The notes below the pieces were generated by a model. It ran no database searches. It saw only the letters and a list, made by a program, of their open reading frames with translations, and had not been told where the DNA came from. Both the position numbers and the translations under genes were made by a program. Shown piece by piece: positions 18,250 through 45,919 of a stretch of 62,511 nucleotides of DNA; within the stretch, counting starts at the first letter, position 1, and each line of letters starts with the position of its first letter. This DNA comes from a virus. The stretch is taken from IMG/VR virus record IMGVR_UViG_3300047178_000142, positions 1-62,511 of that record. One strand, written 5' to 3'.

Positions 18250-19899
18250 TCAGGATGCCCGCAGCGGGTATCGCACGACCATGCGAACGCTGGGTTGGGG
18301 GCGTGTGTAGCTCGCTCCAGCTACCAGCGCCCCCAACCGAGATTTCCGGTGCGCTGGTTCGTCGTCCAAGAACGCCGCCAGCTTGCCGTGAAGGATGATG
18401 TCGATAGGCGTGCCGCGCTCTTGGGATGTCGGCGCGATGACGATCTTGTCGATCAGGCCCCTGACCGCGTCGATTAACTCTCGTTTAGCCGGTGTCGCGC
18501 CATCCGCTGACTGCGCGAGCACCCGCTGCAGCTCGCCGACCATGGCGCCGTAGAGCTTCGGCGTTTCGGGGTGCAGCTGGATCGGCGGCTCATCGACCAG
18601 CATGAATTGGAGCTCGGCTTCAATCTTTCGACGCTCCACGTCCCGTTCCATCATCCGCGCTTCCATGGCAGCTGTCGCCGTGCCGCGTTCGATCGCGTCG
18701 ATTGTGCGTGCTTCCGACCTGATGATTTCGGCAAGTCGCTTCTCCAGCGGCTCCCGCCTCGAAAGCTGCTGCTGGCGGCGCTGATGCGCGGCGTGATGGT
18801 GCTCTCGCACCGCGTCGGCAATGACTTCAGGCTGAAGGATCCTGGCGCGAAGACCCTCCAGGACGCGCGACTGGATTTCCTCGCGGTTGGGCGTGCGTCG
18901 GTTCGCGCAAACGGACGGACCCTTTTCGCGATAGGCGGCGCAGACCAGTTTACCCGACGTGTAAACCGTATAGGAGGCGCCGCAGACGCATTTGACTAAG
19001 CCGCTGAACAGCCAGGCCGGACGTGGCGACTTTTCATGCGGCTTGGCCGCGCCCTCCGCCTGTTTTTGCACCCTCGCCCGCGCCCAGGTCTCGTCGTCGA
19101 CGATGCGCAGATGTGGCGCCGGCGTGCGCTTCCACTCCGATTCAGGCTTCATCCTCGGCGTGCGCTTGCCCGTCGTCGGGTGCTTTCGCACCTCCATGCG
19201 GTTCCAAACCTTCACGCCGGCATAGATTTCAGTGTGGAGGATGCCGTTCCCGCGCTGTCGAGAGCCGCACACGGTCGAATGCGCCCACCCCTGGCCCCGC
19301 GGTCCGGGATGCCCCTCGCGGTTCAGGTCGTTGGCGATCTCACGCGGCGACCGGCCGGCTAAATAGTCGGCGAAGATGCGCCGAATTACATCCGCCTCGG
19401 CCTCGACAATTTCCATCGCCCCGCCGGGGCTGGAGCGATAGCCAAAAAGGCGTGATCCGGTCGCGGCGCCGCGTTCGGCATTCGCTCGCATACCGCGCCG
19501 TGTTTTGGCGCCAAGCGTCTTTAGAAACTCCTGCGCCTGCATGCCCTTCCAGGCGACGTGCATGCCCTGCACCTCGTCTGTGGACAGCGTCGCGATGGTG
19601 ACGTCCACATAGGCCATTCGATTGGCGACATGGGCCAAGTGCTCAGTGTTGCGCGCGATCCGGTCCTCGTCCTCGCAGAGCAGGATATCGAATTCTCCCC
19701 GCTCGGCCGACGCGAGCGCATCGAGCATGCCGGGCCGATTGGCCAGGGCGGCGCCGGATATCGCTGCGTCGGAGAATATGCGGACCAGCGACCAGCCGCG
19801 CTGTTCGGCGTGACGACTGCACACGGCCACCTGGTCGCCGATGGACCGCTCGTTCTGGCGGTCCGAGGAGTAGCGCGCATAGATGGCCACCGTCGGCAT
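18250..19899 (-). CDS. Large serine recombinase (phage integrase type)
   Basis: The start at 19899 gives the canonical resolvase opening MPTVAIYARYSSDRQNERSI with the nucleophilic serine at 11. Translation from further upstream would cross the small gene at 19901-20062. The 549-aa protein has a resolvase domain (1-150, with DEDRIARNTEHL), a recombinase domain (about 165-270) and a zinc ribbon (KCVCGASYT ... CAAY ... CANRR). A coiled-coil region and C-terminal tail follow. Serine integrases recombine attP with attB without a DNA bend. It sits at the middle of the leftward early operon rather than at an operon edge. Confidence 0.95.
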   Translation of the reverse strand: MPTVAIYARYSSDRQNERSIGDQVAVCSRHAEQRGWSLVRIFSDAAISGAALANRPGMLDALASAERGEFDILLCEDEDRIARNTEHLAHVANRMAYVDVTIATLSTDEVQGMHVAWKGMQAQEFLKTLGAKTRRGMRANAERGAATGSRLFGYRSSPGGAMEIVEAEADVIRRIFADYLAGRSPREIANDLNREGHPGPRGQGWAHSTVCGSRQRGNGILHTEIYAGVKVWNRMEVRKHPTTGKRTPRMKPESEWKRTPAPHLRIVDDETWARARVQKQAEGAAKPHEKSPRPAWLFSGLVKCVCGASYTVYTSGKLVCAAYREKGPSVCANRRTPNREEIQSRVLEGLRARILQPEVIADAVREHHHAAHQRRQQQLSRREPLEKRLAEIIRSEARTIDAIERGTATAAMEARMMERDVERRKIEAELQFMLVDEPPIQLHPETPKLYGAMVGELQRVLAQSADGATPAKRELIDAVRGLIDKIVIAPTSQERGTPIDIILHGKLAAFLDDEPAHRKSRLGALVAGASYTRPQPSVRMVVRYPLRAS

Positions 19900-19900
19900 G

Positions 19901-20062
19901 TCAGACCCCACGTTTCGGGGCCGGTTTGGCCGCCATGGTCTGACTATGCTGTTCTTCTTCCAGAACCCGTGCAAGCGCCCGGGCCACACGCGCGATGGCG
20001 GGGTCGATCCCTGGCGGGATCGGCCTCGTCTCGGCAGATGTGCGGGAGGCGCGCGCGGACAT
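19901..20062 (-). CDS. Small protein upstream of serine recombinase (53 aa)
   Basis: A short frame starts MSARASRTSAETRPIPPGID and continues with a helix (PAIARVARALARVLEEEQHS). Its stop lies one base before the recombinase start and its start lies 3 nt after the exonuclease stop, so it fills the gap exactly. Short ORFs with a PPGIDP...ALAR helix often precede recombinase genes in prophages. Role unknown; a recombination directionality factor is conceivable but unproven. Confidence 0.6.
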   Translation of the reverse strand: MSARASRTSAETRPIPPGIDPAIARVARALARVLEEEQHSQTMAAKPAPKRGV

Positions 20063-28914: not shown

Positions 28915-29310
28915 ATGACCGAGGCGCAGATGCATTTCACGGATGACGATCTCACCCAAATGTTCAGCTCGTTGCTGCGTAAGCGCACGAGTTCGGCCAA
29001 GGATCTTGCGAAGCGGGTCGATTGCGATCCTCGCGCCGCTGAGCATTACCGGGCGGCCCGTCACCTTCCCCCACTGCCAACATTCGTCCGAATTGTCCGC
29101 GCGCTTGGTGACGATCTCGCACAGGCCGTGTTGTATCCAGACGCCGCAGCTTTGCGGCTCCAGCGAGAGGTTGAAGAACTTGAACGCCAACTCGCCGAAA
29201 CGCGGGCGGCTCTACGTGATGTGGCAGGCGCTTCGTCTGTCCTTCCGCAAGGCGTGGCTCGTCATGAAGACGGGGCCGCCGAATTAGCCCGCTCTCCTTA
29301 CCGACCTTGA
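28915..29310 (+). CDS. Putative HTH regulator with coiled coil
   Basis: The start at 28915 (MTEAQMHFTDDDLTQMFSSL) has GAGG upstream. The segment RTSSAKDLAKRVDCDPRAAE followed by HYRAARHLPPLPTFVRIVRA and LGDDLAQAVL looks like an XRE-type helix-turn-helix in which the protein selects genes in the early operon. A C-terminal coiled coil (LQREVEELERQLAETRAALR) follows. A CII-like or delayed-early regulator role is possible by position. Confidence 0.6.
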   Translation: MTEAQMHFTDDDLTQMFSSLLRKRTSSAKDLAKRVDCDPRAAEHYRAARHLPPLPTFVRIVRALGDDLAQAVLYPDAAALRLQREVEELERQLAETRAALRDVAGASSVLPQGVARHEDGAAELARSPYRP

Positions 29311-30233: not shown

Positions 30234-30619
30234 TGGCCGCCGCGCAAAGTCAGACGCCCGCTCAGGCATACGCCGCTGCGATGCGCCGTCCACAGGGAAC
30301 GGGCCGATCCAAATTCGGCAACCGCAAGACGAAGGTTGATGGCCAGACTTTCGACAGCGCCAAAGAGGCTGCTCGGTTCTTCGCCCTCTCGATGCTTGAG
30401 CGCGCTGGCGAAATCCATTCGCTGATCTGTCAACCCAAGTTCGAGTTCGTCGTCAACGGCGTGCGCATCGGCAGTTTTCGGCCGGATTTTTCGTATGTCC
30501 GCGACGGCAAGCGCATCATCGAAGACGTCAAAGGCGGCGCCGCGACGAAGACGGAGGCTTATGGCCTGCGTAAAAAGCTGCTGCTGGCGCTCCACGGCCT
30601 TGAGGTCGTCGAGACATGA
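30233..30619 (+). CDS. DUF1064 nuclease-like protein
   Basis: The 128-aa protein has SKFGNRKTKVDGQTFDSAKE, AARFFALSMLERAGEIHSL and FRPDFSYVRDGKRIIEDVKG. This is the DUF1064 signature, with Asp (RPDF) and Glu-Asp-x-Lys of a PD-(D/E)XK-like nuclease core. Such proteins are common in phage replication regions and may act as Holliday-junction or structure-specific endonucleases. Confidence 0.85.
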   Translation: MAAAQSQTPAQAYAAAMRRPQGTGRSKFGNRKTKVDGQTFDSAKEAARFFALSMLERAGEIHSLICQPKFEFVVNGVRIGSFRPDFSYVRDGKRIIEDVKGGAATKTEAYGLRKKLLLALHGLEVVET

Positions 30620-30819
30620 GTGCGGGCTTGTTCAGCGATCTTCCGCCGGCGACGCGCCCGATGGTCAGGGCTCAGGCCAAGCCGATCCCCTGCCCTCGCC
30701 GCTGGTCCGGCCCGCCTCAGCATCGCTGCGCCGTGGGCGGTGGGGACGCGGCCTACAGCATCGACTCCGGGAAGACCTGGCTCTGTCGAACCCACGCGGG
30801 AAGAGGAAGCGCTTCGTGA
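30616..30819 (+). CDS. Small protein upstream of C5-methyltransferase
   Basis: The 67-aa frame overlaps DUF1064 (ATGA) and the methyltransferase start (GTGA), a compact arrangement that argues for translation. It contains two cysteines and a GGGDAAYSIDSGKTWLCRTH segment. Not recognised. Confidence 0.6.
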   Translation: MSAGLFSDLPPATRPMVRAQAKPIPCPRRWSGPPQHRCAVGGGDAAYSIDSGKTWLCRTHAGRGSAS

Positions 30820-32975
30820 CTTGCGACCTGATCATTGACCTTTTCGCCGGCGGTGGCGGCGCGTCCGAAGCGATCCTGCGAACCTACGGCCGCCACCCCG
30901 ACATCGCGGTGAACCACGATAAGGAGGCGATCGCACTTCACGAGGCGAACCACCCATCGACGCTTCACCTGTGCGACGACATTCGCCAGGTGGATGTGGC
31001 CGCGGTTCTCGCACGGCCTGAATTTCGCGGTCGTCGCGTCGGGCTGCTCTGGGCCTCGCCTGACTGTAAGGATCACAGCAAGGCCAAGGGCGGTCGGCCA
31101 AAAGACAAGAATATACGGGGCCTTGCCTGGGAGGTGCTGCGCTGGTCGGCGGCGATCAAGCGCGCGACGGGCTCGCTGCCTCGCCAGGTCGCCCTCGAAA
31201 ACGTCGAAGAGTTCGCGGATTGGGGTCCGATCCACGCGAAGGGCCCGAACGCAGGCCGGGTGATGAAGCACCGGCGCGGCGAGACCTTCCGTCTCTGGAA
31301 GGAGCAGCTGCGCTCCATCGGCTTCCACGCGATCGAGCATCGCGAGCTGGTGGCCGCCGACTACGGCGCGCCCACGACCCGCAAGCGCCTGTTCCTGATC
31401 GCACGAAGCGATGGTCAAGCCATAGCTTGGCCCAAGCCCACCCATGCGCCCAAATCGAAGGTGACAAAGCAGGGCGATCTGTTCAGCGCCGCGTCCGCGC
31501 ATGCGCTGACGCCTTATAGATCGGCCGCCAGCTTCATCGACTGGAACCGGCCGATACCCTCGATCTTCGGTCGCCGACGCGCCCTGCAGCCGAAGACCCA
31601 GGCGCGCATCGCCAAGGGCATCAAGCGCTACGTCATCGAGGCGGCGCGCCCTTTCATCGTCAAGGTCACCCATACGACCGGAACCGACGCGGCGTCGGCG
31701 GCGGACGATCCGTTGCAGACCGTCACTACAGCCAAGGGCGGGGAGTTTGCGGTCTCGGCGCCAACTATTATGCCGCTGACGCACGGCGGGGCTATAGACC
31801 GCTCATACGATCCGCAAGAGCCCATCCGCACCATCACAGCCGCGCACCGCGGCGAGCTAAGCGTCGTCGCCCCGGCGCTTGTGCCGCGCTACGGTGAGCG
31901 GCCTGGTCAGGAGCCCCGGGCCCGGTCTGTTGAGGATCCTTACCCGACCGTCGTGCCGGATGGGAACGGCGGCCAGCTGGTCGCTGCGAACGTCATCCGC
32001 ACGGATATGCAGTCGGCCGCGCTGCGTAATGGCGTTCACTCCGCCGAAGATCCTCTGCGGACCATCACGACCTCGGGCGGCTTCGCGGCAGCCGCCGTGC
32101 ACCTCACAAAGTTCAGCGAGAACAGCATCGGCACCAAGCCCGATGAGCCGCTGCACCCGGCGATGGCCGGCGCGCCTGGTCATGGCGTCGTGGCCGCCTA
32201 TCTTGGCCGCCAGTTCGGCACGACGGTCAGCGGGCGGGACCTAGCCGAGCCCCATCCGGCCGTGATGTCAGATGGCGGAGGCGGCAAGAGCCAGCTGGTC
32301 TCCGCACACCTCAGCCGCATGGCGAAGGGCTCGGTCGGCTCCGCAGCGGACGAGCCGGTTCTGACAAGTGCGACCCATGCCAAGGACGCGCTGATCGCCC
32401 CCGTGATCGACAAATACTACGGCTCCGGCGTCGCTGCCGACCCCGCCGAGCCGCTGGACACCGCGACCGCCAAGGCGCGCTTTGGACTGGGAGCGGCGTT
32501 TCTGGAGCAAGCGAACACGGGCTTGGTCGGCCATTCCGTCGAGGACGCGCTGTCAACGATCGTCGGCTCGGGCTCACATCAACGCCTGATCGACGCCCAT
32601 CTCGGTGATGAGAGCGCACCGCATCGACGCCAGGTGCTGGAATTTCTCTGGCGGCATTTCGGCGCTCCGACTGAGGCGGAGTGCGCCGACCCGCTCGCGA
32701 CCGCTCTTGGCCGCCTCCGCTTCGGCCTGGTCGTGATCGACGACGTTTGTTGGTCCATCGTGGACGTGGGCATGCGGATGCTAACGCCGCGCGAGCTCTA
32801 CTCCGCCCAGGGCTTTGGGCCCGAGTACCAGATCGAGATCACCTTCGCCGGCAAGCCGCTGACCAAGACGGCGCAGACGCGGATGGCGGGGAACAGCGTC
32901 AGTCCGCCGCCGGCCGCGGCGTTGTTGAAGGCGAATATGATTGGCGCCCTCCAGATTGTGGAGCGGGTGTCGTGA
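30816..32975 (+). CDS. DNA (cytosine-5)-methyltransferase with repeat-rich recognition domain
   Basis: The GTG start at 30816 overlaps the previous stop and leads directly into motif I, LIIDLFAGGGGASEAI (residues 6-20). Motif IV is WASPDCKDHSKAKGG (Cys84, in the S-P-D-C form of phage enzymes), motif VI is ALENVEEF (128-129) and motif VIII is TRKRLFLIAR. The C-terminal NSVSPPPAAALLKA is motif X-like. Between them lies a 400-residue region with about ten copies of a (D/E)-P-x-x-T-(V/I)-T-type repeat (for example DDPLQTVTTAKGG, QEPIRTITAAHRG). The 719-aa length is about twice that of a minimal Dcm. It probably protects phage DNA from host restriction. No cognate nuclease is seen. Confidence 0.9.
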   Translation: MTCDLIIDLFAGGGGASEAILRTYGRHPDIAVNHDKEAIALHEANHPSTLHLCDDIRQVDVAAVLARPEFRGRRVGLLWASPDCKDHSKAKGGRPKDKNIRGLAWEVLRWSAAIKRATGSLPRQVALENVEEFADWGPIHAKGPNAGRVMKHRRGETFRLWKEQLRSIGFHAIEHRELVAADYGAPTTRKRLFLIARSDGQAIAWPKPTHAPKSKVTKQGDLFSAASAHALTPYRSAASFIDWNRPIPSIFGRRRALQPKTQARIAKGIKRYVIEAARPFIVKVTHTTGTDAASAADDPLQTVTTAKGGEFAVSAPTIMPLTHGGAIDRSYDPQEPIRTITAAHRGELSVVAPALVPRYGERPGQEPRARSVEDPYPTVVPDGNGGQLVAANVIRTDMQSAALRNGVHSAEDPLRTITTSGGFAAAAVHLTKFSENSIGTKPDEPLHPAMAGAPGHGVVAAYLGRQFGTTVSGRDLAEPHPAVMSDGGGGKSQLVSAHLSRMAKGSVGSAADEPVLTSATHAKDALIAPVIDKYYGSGVAADPAEPLDTATAKARFGLGAAFLEQANTGLVGHSVEDALSTIVGSGSHQRLIDAHLGDESAPHRRQVLEFLWRHFGAPTEAECADPLATALGRLRFGLVVIDDVCWSIVDVGMRMLTPRELYSAQGFGPEYQIEITFAGKPLTKTAQTRMAGNSVSPPPAAALLKANMIGALQIVERVS

Positions 32976-33588: not shown

Positions 33589-33765
33589 ATGATCCGCGTA
33601 AACGCCACCCGCTATGCGCGCGTCGCCTGCTCCATTCCGCTGATCCGGCGCGGCGCTAAGCGCTTCAGGCACTTGGCGGAAATCGTCGAGAAGCACGATC
33701 GACGGGCTGAAAAGGGCAAGCTGTCAAAACCAGAGGGGCGGCCATCGCGGCGGCTGCGCACATGA
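33589..33765 (+). CDS. Small basic protein (58 aa)
   Basis: The ATG at 33589 follows GAGGGT and the stop overlaps the helicase-methyltransferase start (ATGA). The product is strongly basic (RRGAKRFRHLAEIVEKHDRR, PEGRPSRRLRT), so nucleic-acid binding is plausible. Not recognised. Confidence 0.6.
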   Translation: MIRVNATRYARVACSIPLIRRGAKRFRHLAEIVEKHDRRAEKGKLSKPEGRPSRRLRT

Positions 33766-36263
33766 CGAAGACCTATCACGACTTCCTACAATCCAAAGCC
33801 ATCGCGGCGCCCACGACGGGCTTTGAGGTCGAGCCCGGCGAGCTGCACCCCTGGCTTAAGGACTTCACGCGCGCCATCGTGCAGTGGGGCCTGGCGGGCG
33901 GGTGCCGCGCCTACTTCATGGCCTATGGCCTGCACAAGACCGTCACCCAGCTGGAGAGCCTGCGCCAGATCGTGAAGCTGACCGGCCGGCCGGCCCTGCA
34001 AGTCGCGCCCCTGGGCGTGCGGCAGGAGTTCTTCGACGACGCCGCCAAGCTAGGCATGGACCTGCCTTTCATCCGCTCGGAGAGCGAGATCCGCGACGCC
34101 ACGGTCAACCTCGTCAATTACGAGACAATCCGTGACGGCAAGATCGACCCCGCCCTGTTCGTAGCCACGAGCCTAGACGAGGCGGATGTCCTGCGCAGCT
34201 ATGGCTCCAAGACCTTCCAGGAGTTCCTGCCGGCCTTCGAGGCCGTGCCCTACAAGTTCGTGGCGACGGCAACGCCGAGCCCCAATCGCTACAAAGAGAT
34301 CATCCATTATGCCGGCTTCCTAGGCGTCATGGACACAGGCCAGGCCCTGACCCGCTTCTTCCAGCGCAACAGCGAGAAGGCCAACGACCTCACGCTCTAC
34401 CCCCATAAGGAGGAGGAGTTCTGGCTCTGGGTGTCCACCTGGGCGGTGTTCGTGCAGAAGCCGTCAGACCTTGGCTTCAGCGATGAGGGCTACGCCCTGC
34501 CGGACCTCGATGTGCGGTGGCACGAGGTGCAGAGCGATCTCGGCACGCCCGAGACCGACAGCCGGGGCCAGTACCAGATGCTCCGTAACGCCGCGGTCGG
34601 CGTGCAGCAGGCGGCGCGCGAGAAGCGCGACAGCCTGCCGGCGCGCATCGCCAAGCTGAAGGCGCTGCGCGAGGCCGAGCCGGAAAACCACTTCATCCTC
34701 TGGCACGACCTGGAGGACGAACGCCGCGCGATCGAGGCGGCTCTGCCGGCCGCGGCCGCCGTCTACGGGACGCAGGATATCGAAGCGCGCGAAGAGATCA
34801 TCCGGGGGTTCAAGAACGGCCAGGTCACCGACCTTGCGGCCAAGCCGGTCATGCTCGGCGCCGGCGGCAACCTGCAACGCCATTGCCATAGAGCCATTTT
34901 CGCCGGCATCGGCCACAAGTTCCGCGACTTCGCCCAGGCCATCCATCGCATCCAGCGCTTCGGCCAGACGCAGAAGGTCGTCATCGACCTGATCTATTCG
35001 GAGGCCGAGCGCGAAATCCGGCGCGACCTTGAGGCCAAATGGGAGCGCGACCGGCAGTTGCGCGAGCGCATGTCCGAACTGATCCGTCGCTATGGCCTAA
35101 ACCGCACCTCGCCTCTTGAGGCGATGAGACGCTCAATCGGGATCAACCCGGTGCTCGAGGCGGGCGAGGGGTGGACGGCCGTCAACAACGACTGCGTCGA
35201 CGAGACCCGGCGTATGGCGTCGGACAGCGTCGGCCTGGTGGTCACATCGGTGCCGTTCGGGACGCAGTACGAGTACTGCGAGAGCTATAACGACTTCGGC
35301 CACAACGACGACAACGCCGCCTTCTTCCGGCAGATGGACTTCCTGACGCCGGAGTTGTTCCGGATCTTGCAGCCGGGCCGGTTCCTGGCCGTGCACGTCA
35401 AGGACAGGATCCTGTTCGGCACGGTCACCGGCCTAGGCTTCCCTACCGTCGAACCGTTCCACGCCGACTGCATCGCCCACTACCGCCAACACGGCTTCGC
35501 CTTCATGGCCATGCGACCGATCGAGACGGACGTGGTGCGGGAGAACAACCAGACCTATCGGCTGGGCTATTCCGAAATGCGCAAGGACGCGACCAAGATG
35601 GGGTCGGGCTGTCCTGAATACATGCTCTTCTTCCGCAAGCCCCAAAGCGACAGAAGCCGCGGCTATGCCGACGTGCCGGTCGTCAAGGCGGAGGCGGATT
35701 ACAGCCTGGCGCGATGGCAGGTGGACGCAGCGGCCTATTGGCGGTCGAGCGGCGATCGCCCGCTGACGACGGCGGAGCTCGCGGCGCTCCCGCCCGACGT
35801 CCTGTCGCGGGCCTTCCGCAAGCAGTCGGCGCGCACCGTCTACGATCACGAGGCGCACGTTGCGCTGGCCCAAGCCCTGGCCGAGCGCGGGGCCCTGCCC
35901 AAGACCTTTTCGGCGCTGAGCTTGGAGACGGCCGTCGGCGATGTCTGGACCGATATCGTGCGGATGCGGACATTGAACAACGACCAGAGCCTAGGCGGGC
36001 GCGAGAAGCACGTCTGCCCCCTGCAGATCGACGTGGTTGATCGCGTCATCCGGCTCTACTCCAATCCGGGGGATCTCGTCTTCGATCCCTTCGCCGGCCT
36101 CTTCACGGTGCCGGTCCGCGCACTTCACCTGCGGCGGCGCGGCTACGGGTCGGAACTGCATAGCCAATACTTCGAAGATGGGGTCCGCTATCTTCGCGCC
36201 GCCGAACGCGAGGTGGGCCAGCCTACCTTGTTCGACCTGCTAGGCGGGGAGCAGGCGGCATGA
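33762..36263 (+). CDS. SNF2-like helicase fused to N6/N4 DNA methyltransferase
   Basis: The 833-aa protein has an N-terminal helicase part. Its Walker A region reads GGCRAYFMAYGLHKT rather than GLGKT, the DEAD-type box reads VATSLDEADVLRSYGSKTFQ, and the C-lobe has HRIQRFGQTQKVVIDLIYSE. The methyltransferase (about 455-833) has motif IV as VVTSVPFGTQYEYCESYNDF and motif I late, as VFDPFAGLFTVP, so it is circularly ordered (beta class). The TS(I/V)PF form recurs in related phage enzymes, so it is probably active. The His in place of the Walker A Gly raises doubt about ATPase activity. It probably modifies phage DNA while tracking on it. Confidence 0.85.
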   Translation: MTKTYHDFLQSKAIAAPTTGFEVEPGELHPWLKDFTRAIVQWGLAGGCRAYFMAYGLHKTVTQLESLRQIVKLTGRPALQVAPLGVRQEFFDDAAKLGMDLPFIRSESEIRDATVNLVNYETIRDGKIDPALFVATSLDEADVLRSYGSKTFQEFLPAFEAVPYKFVATATPSPNRYKEIIHYAGFLGVMDTGQALTRFFQRNSEKANDLTLYPHKEEEFWLWVSTWAVFVQKPSDLGFSDEGYALPDLDVRWHEVQSDLGTPETDSRGQYQMLRNAAVGVQQAAREKRDSLPARIAKLKALREAEPENHFILWHDLEDERRAIEAALPAAAAVYGTQDIEAREEIIRGFKNGQVTDLAAKPVMLGAGGNLQRHCHRAIFAGIGHKFRDFAQAIHRIQRFGQTQKVVIDLIYSEAEREIRRDLEAKWERDRQLRERMSELIRRYGLNRTSPLEAMRRSIGINPVLEAGEGWTAVNNDCVDETRRMASDSVGLVVTSVPFGTQYEYCESYNDFGHNDDNAAFFRQMDFLTPELFRILQPGRFLAVHVKDRILFGTVTGLGFPTVEPFHADCIAHYRQHGFAFMAMRPIETDVVRENNQTYRLGYSEMRKDATKMGSGCPEYMLFFRKPQSDRSRGYADVPVVKAEADYSLARWQVDAAAYWRSSGDRPLTTAELAALPPDVLSRAFRKQSARTVYDHEAHVALAQALAERGALPKTFSALSLETAVGDVWTDIVRMRTLNNDQSLGGREKHVCPLQIDVVDRVIRLYSNPGDLVFDPFAGLFTVPVRALHLRRRGYGSELHSQYFEDGVRYLRAAEREVGQPTLFDLLGGEQAA

Positions 36264-42481: not shown

Positions 42482-42487
42482 AGCGCA

Positions 42488-42587
42488 ACAATAAGTCTGC
42501 GCCCGCCGACACAATAAGTCGGGCCTTCGGGGGTCGGTTTGCAACATAAGTCGTCCAGGGCGTCTCATAATGTTTGTTATGTGACGT
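42488..42587. other. dif-like core plus ATAAGTC repeats, attP candidate
   Basis: CATAATGTTTGTTATG at 42566-42581 is an inverted repeat (CATAA, 6-bp centre, TTATG). With 11-bp arms it fills 42560-42587 and has the XerC-arm, 6-bp centre, XerD-arm plan of dif. I count 19 of 28 matches to E. coli dif. Upstream lie three direct ATAAGTC copies (42491-42497, 42514-42520, 42546-42552). The recombinase gene starts 21 bp downstream. Confidence 0.6.
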
Positions 42588-42608
42588 ATTTGGAGACCTG
42601 GAGGCCGG

Positions 42609-43469
42609 ATGAATACTGTTCCGGCTCAAGGGCTTAGCATCTTGTCGGCAGGCGACCGCCAAATCGTGCGCCATTGGCTGCACGGGAAACAGCCCAATAC
42701 GGCGTCTGCCTACCAGGCCGATGCGACCCGATTTCTGGCCTTCGCGGGCAAGCCGATTGCAGACGTTCAGCTGACCGATTTGCAAGCCTATTCCGACAGC
42801 ATGCCGGAAGTTTCGACGGCCACGCGCGCCCGGCGCTTGTCCGCGATCAAGTCGCTTCTGACCTTCGCGGTTAAGGGCGATTTCATCACGAGCAACCCCG
42901 GCGCCGCGCTGCAGGTCGGCAAGGCGCAGATCACCAGCGCCGACCACCTGCTGAGCGAAACGGACGTTCGCCGTATGATCGGCTGCGAACCCGACCCCCG
43001 ACGTCGCGCAGTTTTGCGGCTTCTCTACGTTTGCGGCCTCCGCGCTTCCGAGGCTTGCGGTCTTCGCTGGCGCGACATGACAGGAACCGACCGAAAGGGC
43101 GGTGAAGCGAAGATCCTGGGTAAGGGTGGCAAGCTGCGCACCGTGGTCGTGCCGGCGGACCTCTGGCGCGAGCTGGCGGCGCTGACCCCTGCCCTCAATC
43201 ATGACAGCCCGGTTCTGCCGGGCGCCCGCGGCGCAGCGTTGCGACGCGAGGCCATCCACCGGATCGTCAAGCGCGCGGCCAAACGGGCGGGCGTTACCGA
43301 AGCGGCGTCGGCCCACTGGCTGCGCCATTCCCACGCGAGCCATGCGCTCGACAACGGCTGCAAGGTCCACGTCCTGGCGGAAAGCCTGGGCCACGCCTCG
43401 CTCGCCACCACTTCACGCTACGCGCATGCCCGGGCTGGCGAACGCTCGGCCGCCTTCATCAAGGGCTAA
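42609..43469 (+). CDS. Xer-type tyrosine recombinase
   Basis: The 286-aa protein has the length and two-domain plan of XerC/XerD: a SAM-like N-terminal domain (1-100) and a catalytic domain. Catalytic residues fit the family: Arg145 (CGLRASEACGLRW), Lys in GKGGKLRTVVVP, His236 and Arg239 (HWLRHSHASHAL), His262 and Tyr271 (LGHASLATTSRYAH). GGAGG-type ribosome site upstream. It is encoded directly beside a dif-like inverted repeat, so it probably acts there, either for integration at host dif or for monomer resolution. Confidence 0.9.
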   Translation: MNTVPAQGLSILSAGDRQIVRHWLHGKQPNTASAYQADATRFLAFAGKPIADVQLTDLQAYSDSMPEVSTATRARRLSAIKSLLTFAVKGDFITSNPGAALQVGKAQITSADHLLSETDVRRMIGCEPDPRRRAVLRLLYVCGLRASEACGLRWRDMTGTDRKGGEAKILGKGGKLRTVVVPADLWRELAALTPALNHDSPVLPGARGAALRREAIHRIVKRAAKRAGVTEAASAHWLRHSHASHALDNGCKVHVLAESLGHASLATTSRYAHARAGERSAAFIKG

Positions 43470-45307: not shown

Positions 45308-45919
45308 ATGGATCGTCCCCAGCCGCCAGACAGTCTGTTCGACGCGCCGGACGGCATCTTCGTCCCCGCGCCCGAACTTATCGCATGGGCGACAGACACC
45401 TTCATTCTTCCCGGCGCGCCCCTCTGGAACGAGGAGCACGCCCATCTCCAATTCGCGGACCTCGGCGCCCTTTGGACCAACGTCGGGAACGGCCGTCATG
45501 GGAATCGCATTGTCGGCCAGTGCGAGGTGGGCCGTCCCCAGGCGATGGGGAAATGGGCCAAGGTGCGAGCCGAGATGCAGGTGCGGTCATGGTTTGGCTG
45601 CATCCCCGATTTCATCATCACCATCGACGCCGCATATGCCCGTGAGTGTGAGGACGCCACCTTCTGTTCGCTGACTGAGCATGAGCTTCTCCATGCGGGG
45701 CAGGAAAAGGACGGTTTCGGCGCCCCGAAGTTTCGCCGGGACGGCTCGCCCGCCTTCGCGATCCGGGGGCACGACGTCGAGGAGTTCGTCAGCATCGTCG
45801 ATCGCTACGGCGTCGGCGCGGCGGCTGGTCGAACCGCCGACCTGGTGGCCGCCGCAGCGCGTGACCCATGTGTCGCGCCCGCCAACATCGCCCATGCCTG
45901 CGGCACCTGCCGCGCCTGA
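45308..45919 (+). CDS. Putative phage metallopeptidase (HExxH)
   Basis: The 203-aa protein has LTEHELLHAGQEKDGFGAPK with His125-Glu126 and His129 as the zinc site. A further His (GHDVEEFVSIVDRYG) may be the third ligand. This matches a small phage metallopeptidase-like family found next to terminase genes. Target unknown. It is the first gene of the packaging block. Confidence 0.8.
   Translation: MDRPQPPDSLFDAPDGIFVPAPELIAWATDTFILPGAPLWNEEHAHLQFADLGALWTNVGNGRHGNRIVGQCEVGRPQAMGKWAKVRAEMQVRSWFGCIPDFIITIDAAYARECEDATFCSLTEHELLHAGQEKDGFGAPKFRRDGSPAFAIRGHDVEEFVSIVDRYGVGAAAGRTADLVAAAARDPCVAPANIAHACGTCRA

What the first reader, a model, noticed from the sequence alone, without database searches (positions are those of the whole stretch)
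42488..43469. Xer-type recombinase beside a dif-like site
CATAATGTTTGTTATG plus flanking arms at 42560-42587 has the 11-6-11 plan of dif and matches E. coli dif at 19 of 28 positions by my count. A 286-aa recombinase with Xer length and all catalytic residues starts 21 bp later. Known Xer-using elements such as CTXphi are mostly filamentous and use host XerCD; a contractile-tailed phage carrying its own Xer-like enzyme and a dif-like site would be unusual. It might integrate at host dif or resolve multimers of an episomal prophage.
Basis: partly seen in the sequence, partly recalled or inferred. Interest (0 to 1): 0.78.

Follow-up and report, generated by a model that had tools for sequence, protein, structure and literature searches.

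The report
Phage's second recombinase with composite site
A family of temperate bacterial viruses carries, besides the enzyme that inserts them into the host chromosome, a second small recombinase packed together with its own five-part DNA target; it most likely keeps the viral DNA in single-genome circles and does not insert the virus at the host's dif site, as had been suggested.

Summary
42560-42587 is an 11-6-11 inverted repeat, 19/28 to E. coli dif, ending 21 bp before a 286-aa Xer-sized tyrosine recombinase with all catalytic residues. It is part of something larger: a ~105-bp composite site with three more half-sites, whose ATAA boxes lie exactly 76, 53 and 21 bp upstream of the core's. 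Eleven loci share this plan and 52 related phage loci share a sister plan (-76/-65/-32, shifted by 1 bp in the phiKM1 subgroup). Recombinase and site travel as one cassette.

The dif-integration reading fails. Acetic-acid-bacterial prophages hold the site once, internally, often carry a separate integrase at the prophage end, and their sites differ from host dif in arms and central hexamer. The window phage has a large serine integrase of its own. The dif resemblance is the shared Xer half-site motif.

The closest non-phage relatives sit on plasmids, several beside ParA, Rep or toxin-antitoxin genes. The anatomy (core plus extra copies of the half-site, next to the gene) is that of TnpI/IRS of Tn4430. 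Best explanation: a self-regulated, resolution-type recombinase that keeps phage circles monomeric, as P1 Cre/lox does. Recombination at the core is very likely (~0.9); multimer resolution as its purpose is likely but unshown (~0.6). New variant of a known kind.

The parts
42484..42494 (+). accessory half-site 1 (CGCAACAATAA), ATAA 76 bp upstream of the core ATAA
   Evidence: same offset (within 1 bp) in 11 window-type loci and, with the sister plan, in 52 more
42507..42517 (+). accessory half-site 2 (CGACACAATAA), -53
   Evidence: fixed offset (within 1 bp) in window-type loci; an inverted half-site at -65 takes its place in the sister type
42539..42549 (+). accessory half-site 3 (TTGCAACATAA), -21
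   Evidence: sister type has it at -32, 11 bp (about one helical turn) further out
42560..42570 (+). left arm of the recombination core (GCGTCTCATAA)
42571..42576 (+). asymmetric 6-bp central region TGTTTG (predicted strand-exchange region; ends in G in all composite-site relatives)
   Evidence: role inferred from the Xer/Cre mechanism
42577..42587 (-). right arm of the core (reverse complement ACGTCACATAA, followed by C)
   Evidence: ATAAC in 100% of right arms, ATAAT in 65% of left arms
42609..43469 (+). Xer-like tyrosine recombinase, 286 aa, SAM-like core-binding plus catalytic domain, no arm-binding domain
18250..19989 (-). large serine recombinase, 579 aa: the phage's probable integrase (context; argues against the tyrosine recombinase being the integrase)
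   Evidence: Resolvase, Recombinase and zinc-ribbon domains; no second tyrosine recombinase in the window

Best explanation
The unit at 42484-43469 is a self-contained site-specific recombination cassette: an Xer-like tyrosine recombinase plus a composite resolution site of five half-sites (a core of two inverted 11-mers around 6 bp, and three upstream copies of the half-site). Four recombinase molecules would synapse two cores and exchange strands in the 6-bp centre. Further molecules on the upstream half-sites would act as a topological filter, so that only directly repeated sites on one molecule recombine. A monomeric phage genome holds one site, so the substrates are head-to-tail multimers (dimer circles from replication or recombination, tandem copies), which would be reduced to monomers. 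The site lies where the gene's promoter is expected, so the enzyme may also regulate itself. Shown by computation: the cassette, its fixed geometry, intact catalytic residues, one site per genome, a separate integrase. Inferred: recombination at the core, binding of the accessory half-sites by the same enzyme, resolution selectivity, the biological purpose.
For: Composite site with fixed offsets in 63 of 86 loci, covering nearly all members sampled from the two main phage subclades. All six catalytic residues invariant in 27 proteins. Outer bases of the -32 half-site follow the core arms of the same phage (5.8 of 7 matches against 4.5 in shuffles, none of 5,000 as high; relatedness not removed), pointing to one protein binding both. 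One good core per phage genome. In eight lysogen genomes the core is found in the prophage; a second perfect copy in one belongs to a second family member. Homology between related phages breaks at -83 to -99, the upstream edge of the site, never at the core: gene and site move together. A separate integrase in phiAP1, phiKM1 and many prophage records and a serine recombinase in the window. Closest non-phage relatives are on plasmids, several near ParA, Rep or RelE-type genes, some with a palindrome just before the gene. Anatomy matches irs of Tn4430: IR1-IR2 core plus DR1, DR2, upstream of tnpI (PMC7157771). Asymmetric centre gives the site a direction.
Against: No recombination product was seen. 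Tailed phages with cos packaging need concatemers, and relatives carry lambda-type (GpA) and HK97-type terminases, so a resolvase acting late would hurt; it would have to act early or in lysogeny. Integrated prophages do not obviously need monomerisation. Plasmid relatives examined lack the accessory half-sites, so their presence on plasmids supports resolution only indirectly. The split of this family from XerC/XerD has only moderate support (84/57).
Confidence: 0.6

Rival explanations
1. P1-like cyclisation: the site lies near the packaging start so that terminally redundant virion DNA has two copies, and the recombinase circularises it after injection.
For: Site is 3.4-3.8 kb upstream of the DUF2280 gene (possible small terminase) and the large terminase gene in the window and 3-4 kb upstream of the terminase genes in phiAP1 and phiKM1; P1 Cre/lox is a phage-borne precedent.
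Against: The cassette occurs with three unrelated terminase types: lambda GpA, HK97-type with an HNH gene next to it, and Terminase_6. The first two are usually cos types without terminal redundancy (established knowledge). Accessory half-sites are not needed for cyclisation; lox has none.
Confidence: 0.12
2. Integration system: the core is attP and the phage integrates at host dif or another chromosomal copy.
For: 19/28 match to E. coli dif; simple tyrosine recombinases integrate some phages (Brujita, PMC8138268); XerCD-using phages exist.
Against: Site found once per lysogen, inside the prophage; separate integrases; phiAP1 attP is beside the other integrase, at position 1 and 42787 of its record (PMC8566455); host dif candidates differ. 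Not tested in the window's own host, which is unknown.
Confidence: 0.04
3. Transcriptional regulator: a recombinase fold that binds the half-sites and controls an operon, like the tyrosine-recombinase-fold regulators of SPbeta-group phages.
For: Sites lie directly before the gene; no sigma-70-type promoter was found there, so a regulated, non-consensus promoter is possible; Phi3T SroF appears among fold matches.
Against: All six catalytic residues are invariant in 27 proteins, and the core keeps strict 11-6-11 geometry with an asymmetric centre. Autoregulation together with recombination remains compatible with the best explanation.
Confidence: 0.12
4. Module exchange: the site recombines co-infecting phages at the border between early genes and the packaging/structural block, producing mosaics.
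For: The cassette sits at that border in phiAP1 and phiKM1 and is joined to unrelated terminases.
Against: Homology breaks lie at the upstream edge of the site, none at the core; central hexamers differ between lineages, which would block exchange.
Confidence: 0.06

Closest known systems
TnpI/IRS (irs) of Tn4430 and Tn5401
   Same: Tyrosine recombinase with its site directly upstream of the gene; core of two inverted motifs plus extra direct copies of the binding motif (PMC7157771). Self-imposed selectivity: Vanhooff et al. 2006, cited there.
   Different: Here three accessory half-sites instead of two, in tailed phages, no Tn3-family transposase seen; protein homology to TnpI was not tested.
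Phage P1 Cre/loxP
   Same: Phage-borne tyrosine recombinase beside its site; Cre keeps P1 monomeric (PMC2409434).
   Different: P1 is a plasmid prophage with a single 34-bp site and no accessory half-sites; here the phages integrate with another enzyme; Cre is a very distant protein.
XerC/XerD-dif, XerS/difSL, XerH/difH
   Same: 11-6-11 plan and ATAA/TTAT inner arms (dif), Xer-sized protein; XerS and XerH also sit next to their site (PMC5357621).
   Different: Scores 140 and 137 bits against XerC/XerD cut-offs of 335 and 330; sites vary by phage lineage and are not host dif; accessory half-sites; not chromosomal.
ColE1 cer / pSC101 psi
   Same: Core plus upstream accessory sequence imposing resolution selectivity (PMC2409434, PMC5357621).
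   Different: Accessory DNA there binds host proteins such as PepA and ArgR, and the recombinases are host XerCD; here the accessory elements look like recombinase half-sites.
Integron IntI/attI1
   Same: attI1 has L/R core boxes plus DR1 and DR2 (PMC9892861).
   Different: 83.8 bits against a 265-bit IntI cut-off; no cassette array or attC was noticed near the site (not systematically searched).
Plasmid tyrosine recombinases of Methylobacterium, cyanobacteria, Bacillus safensis
   Same: 40-46% identity, Xer size, several near ParA/Rep/TA genes.
   Different: Those examined lack the phased accessory half-sites; none is characterised, to my knowledge.

Membership tests
XerC / XerD | passes NCBIfam equivalog cut-off | tested here: not met
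   139.9 and 137.2 bits against 335.15 and 329.6
XerC / XerD | groups with host XerC/XerD in a tree | tested here: not met
   falls with phage and plasmid relatives, away from host and E. coli XerC/D; support of the split only 84/57
chromosomal dif / integrative element using dif | site matches host dif and is found at prophage borders | tested here: not met
   relatives: single internal copy, dif candidates differ; window host unknown
simple tyrosine recombinase superfamily | core-binding plus catalytic domain, R-K-H-R-H-Y residues, no arm-binding domain | tested here: met
phage integrase acting at attP | att site at the enzyme's locus joins phage to host | tested here: not met
   other integrases hold that role in relatives (PMC8566455)
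TnpI/IRS-type resolution system | inverted core plus extra copies of the enzyme's motif, upstream of the gene | tested here: met
TnpI/IRS-type resolution system | accessory motifs bound by the recombinase itself | tested here: inconclusive
   covariation of half-site and core arms; no binding data
TnpI/IRS-type resolution system | carried by a Tn3-family transposon with TnpA; protein homology to TnpI | not tested
   no transposase noticed; TnpI sequence not fetched
Cre/lox-type phage multimer resolution | recombinase keeps the phage replicon monomeric | not testable with these tools
   needs an experiment
integron integrase | passes IntI model cut-off | tested here: not met
   83.8 against 265 bits
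integron integrase | attC cassettes near the site | not tested
   no systematic attC search was made

The most novel reading that the evidence does not exclude
Integrating tailed phages carry a dedicated, self-regulated monomerisation system (Xer-like enzyme plus five-half-site resolution locus) that controls whether phage DNA exists as monomer circles or multimers, and so whether it integrates singly or in tandem or is packaged. It would be a control point in the life cycle of cos phages that, to my knowledge, has not been described.
Probability: 0.4. Interest if true: 0.72.

Novelty: new variant of a known kind. Interest (0 to 1): 0.55.

Why it matters
It shows that a gene usually labelled 'integrase' in these phages is probably not the integrase, which matters for prophage annotation and for building integration vectors. 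It offers a large natural series of recombinase-site pairs (arms, central hexamers and accessory geometry all varying) for studying how simple tyrosine recombinases acquire site specificity and resolution selectivity, and a possible source of new orthogonal recombinases. It raises a testable question: why would an integrating, cos-packaged phage keep a multimer-resolution system?

Tried and rejected
Single-sequence search of viral contigs found nothing; alignments worked. A sample of 385 genomes of the class gave one hit, the centre genome itself. No tRNA in the window and no Rfam family near the site. No sigma-70-like promoter found at the site. Integration at dif rejected. Two sites inside one genome (inversion or deletion switch) rejected: only one good core per phage; phiAP1 has a second ATAA-N6-TTAT at 29112 with poor arms inside a tail-region gene. 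Crossovers at the core between relatives looked for and not found. Integron integrase considered because attI also has DR1/DR2; rejected on model scores. Literature searches found no description of this phage cassette; the library lacks most subscription journals.

Full report
What was checked. The window is a 62,511-base IMG/VR virus record. It is an 11-6-11 inverted repeat with 9 of 11 arm pairs, ending 21 bp before the recombinase ATG. The 286-aa ORF matches PF00589 and PF02899, and its catalytic residues are all present. The phage has a contractile-tail sheath gene.

The site is larger than described. Three further ATAA half-sites lie 76, 53 and 21 bp upstream of the core ATAA, at 42491, 42514 and 42546. 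The same three offsets (within 1 bp) occur in ten other loci (L006, L007, L008, L057-L062, L075). Fifty-two loci, from acetic acid bacteria where a host is named, have a sister plan: half-sites at -76 (+), -65 (-) and -32 (+), shifted by 1 bp in the phiKM1 subgroup. Both plans have five half-sites. The palindrome alone is only mildly unusual (139 of 2,000 shuffles do as well), but the core with three phased half-sites was never seen in 20,000 shuffles, and its repetition in dozens of sequences is the real evidence.

One enzyme probably binds all half-sites. Arms change between lineages (GCAAG, GTCAG, GGGAG, GGGAC before ATAA), and the -32 half-site changes with them: 5.8 of 7 outer bases match the same phage's core arm, against a mean of 4.5 and a maximum of 5.1 in 5,000 shuffles. 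Related sequences inflate such a test, so it is support, not proof. The right arm is always ATAAC and the left mostly ATAAT, and the 6-bp centre always ends in G and is asymmetric, so the core has a direction.

It is not the integration system. phiAP1 and phiKM1, the nearest isolated phages (49 and 51% identity), each encode a second, longer integrase. Published work shows phiAP1 integrates at tRNA-Ser with a 24-bp attP (PMC8566455); I located that attP beside PhiAP1_010, about 12 kb from the Xer-like gene. Many of the prophage records surveyed carry a further tyrosine recombinase near an end. The window has no second tyrosine recombinase but a 579-aa large serine recombinase. In eight lysogen genomes the core occurs in the prophage and not as a pair of att sites; a second perfect copy in A. 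pasteurianus LMG 1262 belongs to a second family member with its own recombinase. Dif candidates conserved across four acetic-acid-bacterial genomes read ATAAGATATATTATGCCA or close variants, unlike the phage sites. The window's closest relatives are less dif-like: L006, L008 and L057 score 9-15 of 28 against the dif sites tried (dif sequences from PMC2731167). The resemblance is therefore best read as the general Xer half-site motif. The host of the window phage is unknown, so this was tested in relatives only.

What it most resembles. The enzyme scores 140 bits for XerC, far below the 335-bit cut-off, and similar values for XerD and XerA. In a tree it falls with phage and plasmid relatives, away from host XerC and XerD; the deep split is only moderately supported. 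The AlphaFold2 model (mean pLDDT 80.6, pTM 0.59, low confidence around the C-terminal tyrosine region) is closest to XerA, Brujita integrase and XerD. Non-phage relatives at 40-46% identity are on plasmids of Methylobacterium, cyanobacteria, Bacillus safensis and others, several next to ParA, Rep or toxin-antitoxin genes. Those plasmids lack the phased half-sites, although pCMU02 has a clear 11-6-11 palindrome 14 bp before the gene. The composite-site phages group together in the tree. The anatomy is that of irs of Tn4430: core IR1-IR2 plus DR1 and DR2, upstream of the tyrosine resolvase tnpI (PMC7157771).

Mechanism. I consider recombination at the core by this enzyme very likely (about 0.9): catalytic residues, core geometry and co-inheritance of gene and site all point to it. 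With one core per genome, only multimers or other molecules can be partners, and accessory elements are the usual way to restrict such reactions to directly repeated sites on one molecule (cer: PMC2409434; irs: PMC7157771). Hence multimer resolution (about 0.6). Packaging is no simple explanation: the cassette is found with lambda-type, HK97-type and Terminase_6 large terminases, so P1-like cyclisation of redundant ends is unlikely to hold for all. Why cos phages would want monomers is open; single-copy lysogeny or early decatenation are guesses.

A cassette. Between near-identical phages, homology breaks at -83 to -99, just outside the -76 half-site, in several pairs (few independent events) and never at the core. 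DUF3164 follows the gene in most relatives but was not found in the window.

Limits. No experiment; no junction reads; collections sampled, not exhausted; the literature library lacks most subscription journals, so an earlier description of this cassette cannot be excluded.

Noticed in passing
window 18250-19989 (-): Large serine recombinase of 579 aa (Resolvase, Recombinase, zinc ribbon): the probable integrase of this phage, not mentioned in the finding.
   Followed up: partly
window 30495-32975 and 33762-36263 (+): Two very long methyltransferase ORFs: 826 aa with a C5-cytosine methylase domain and 833 aa with an N6/N4 methylase domain.
   Followed up: no
L004:13283-13915, L005:16402-17007 and most relatives: A DUF3164 gene follows the Xer-like recombinase in most composite-site phages checked, but was not found in the window.
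   Followed up: partly
L042 (A. pasteurianus LMG 1262, contig C80) and L035: One genome carries two members of the family with different arms and central hexamers, apparently two orthogonal systems side by side.
   Followed up: partly
window 45308-45919 (+): PHROG 513 calls this family 'transposase' while Pfam calls it a phage metallopeptidase (PF18894); the PHROG label looks doubtful.
   Followed up: no
L118 (pNYY1_7, M. radiotolerans): A 17.7-kb plasmid with ParA, a related recombinase and an HK97-type prohead protease gene: possibly a phage-derived plasmid.
   Followed up: no
L027 and L114: More distant relatives (37%) with a core ATGCAGAATAAGACGAATTATCTTGCGT (one base differs in L114) but without the phased accessory half-sites.
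   Followed up: no
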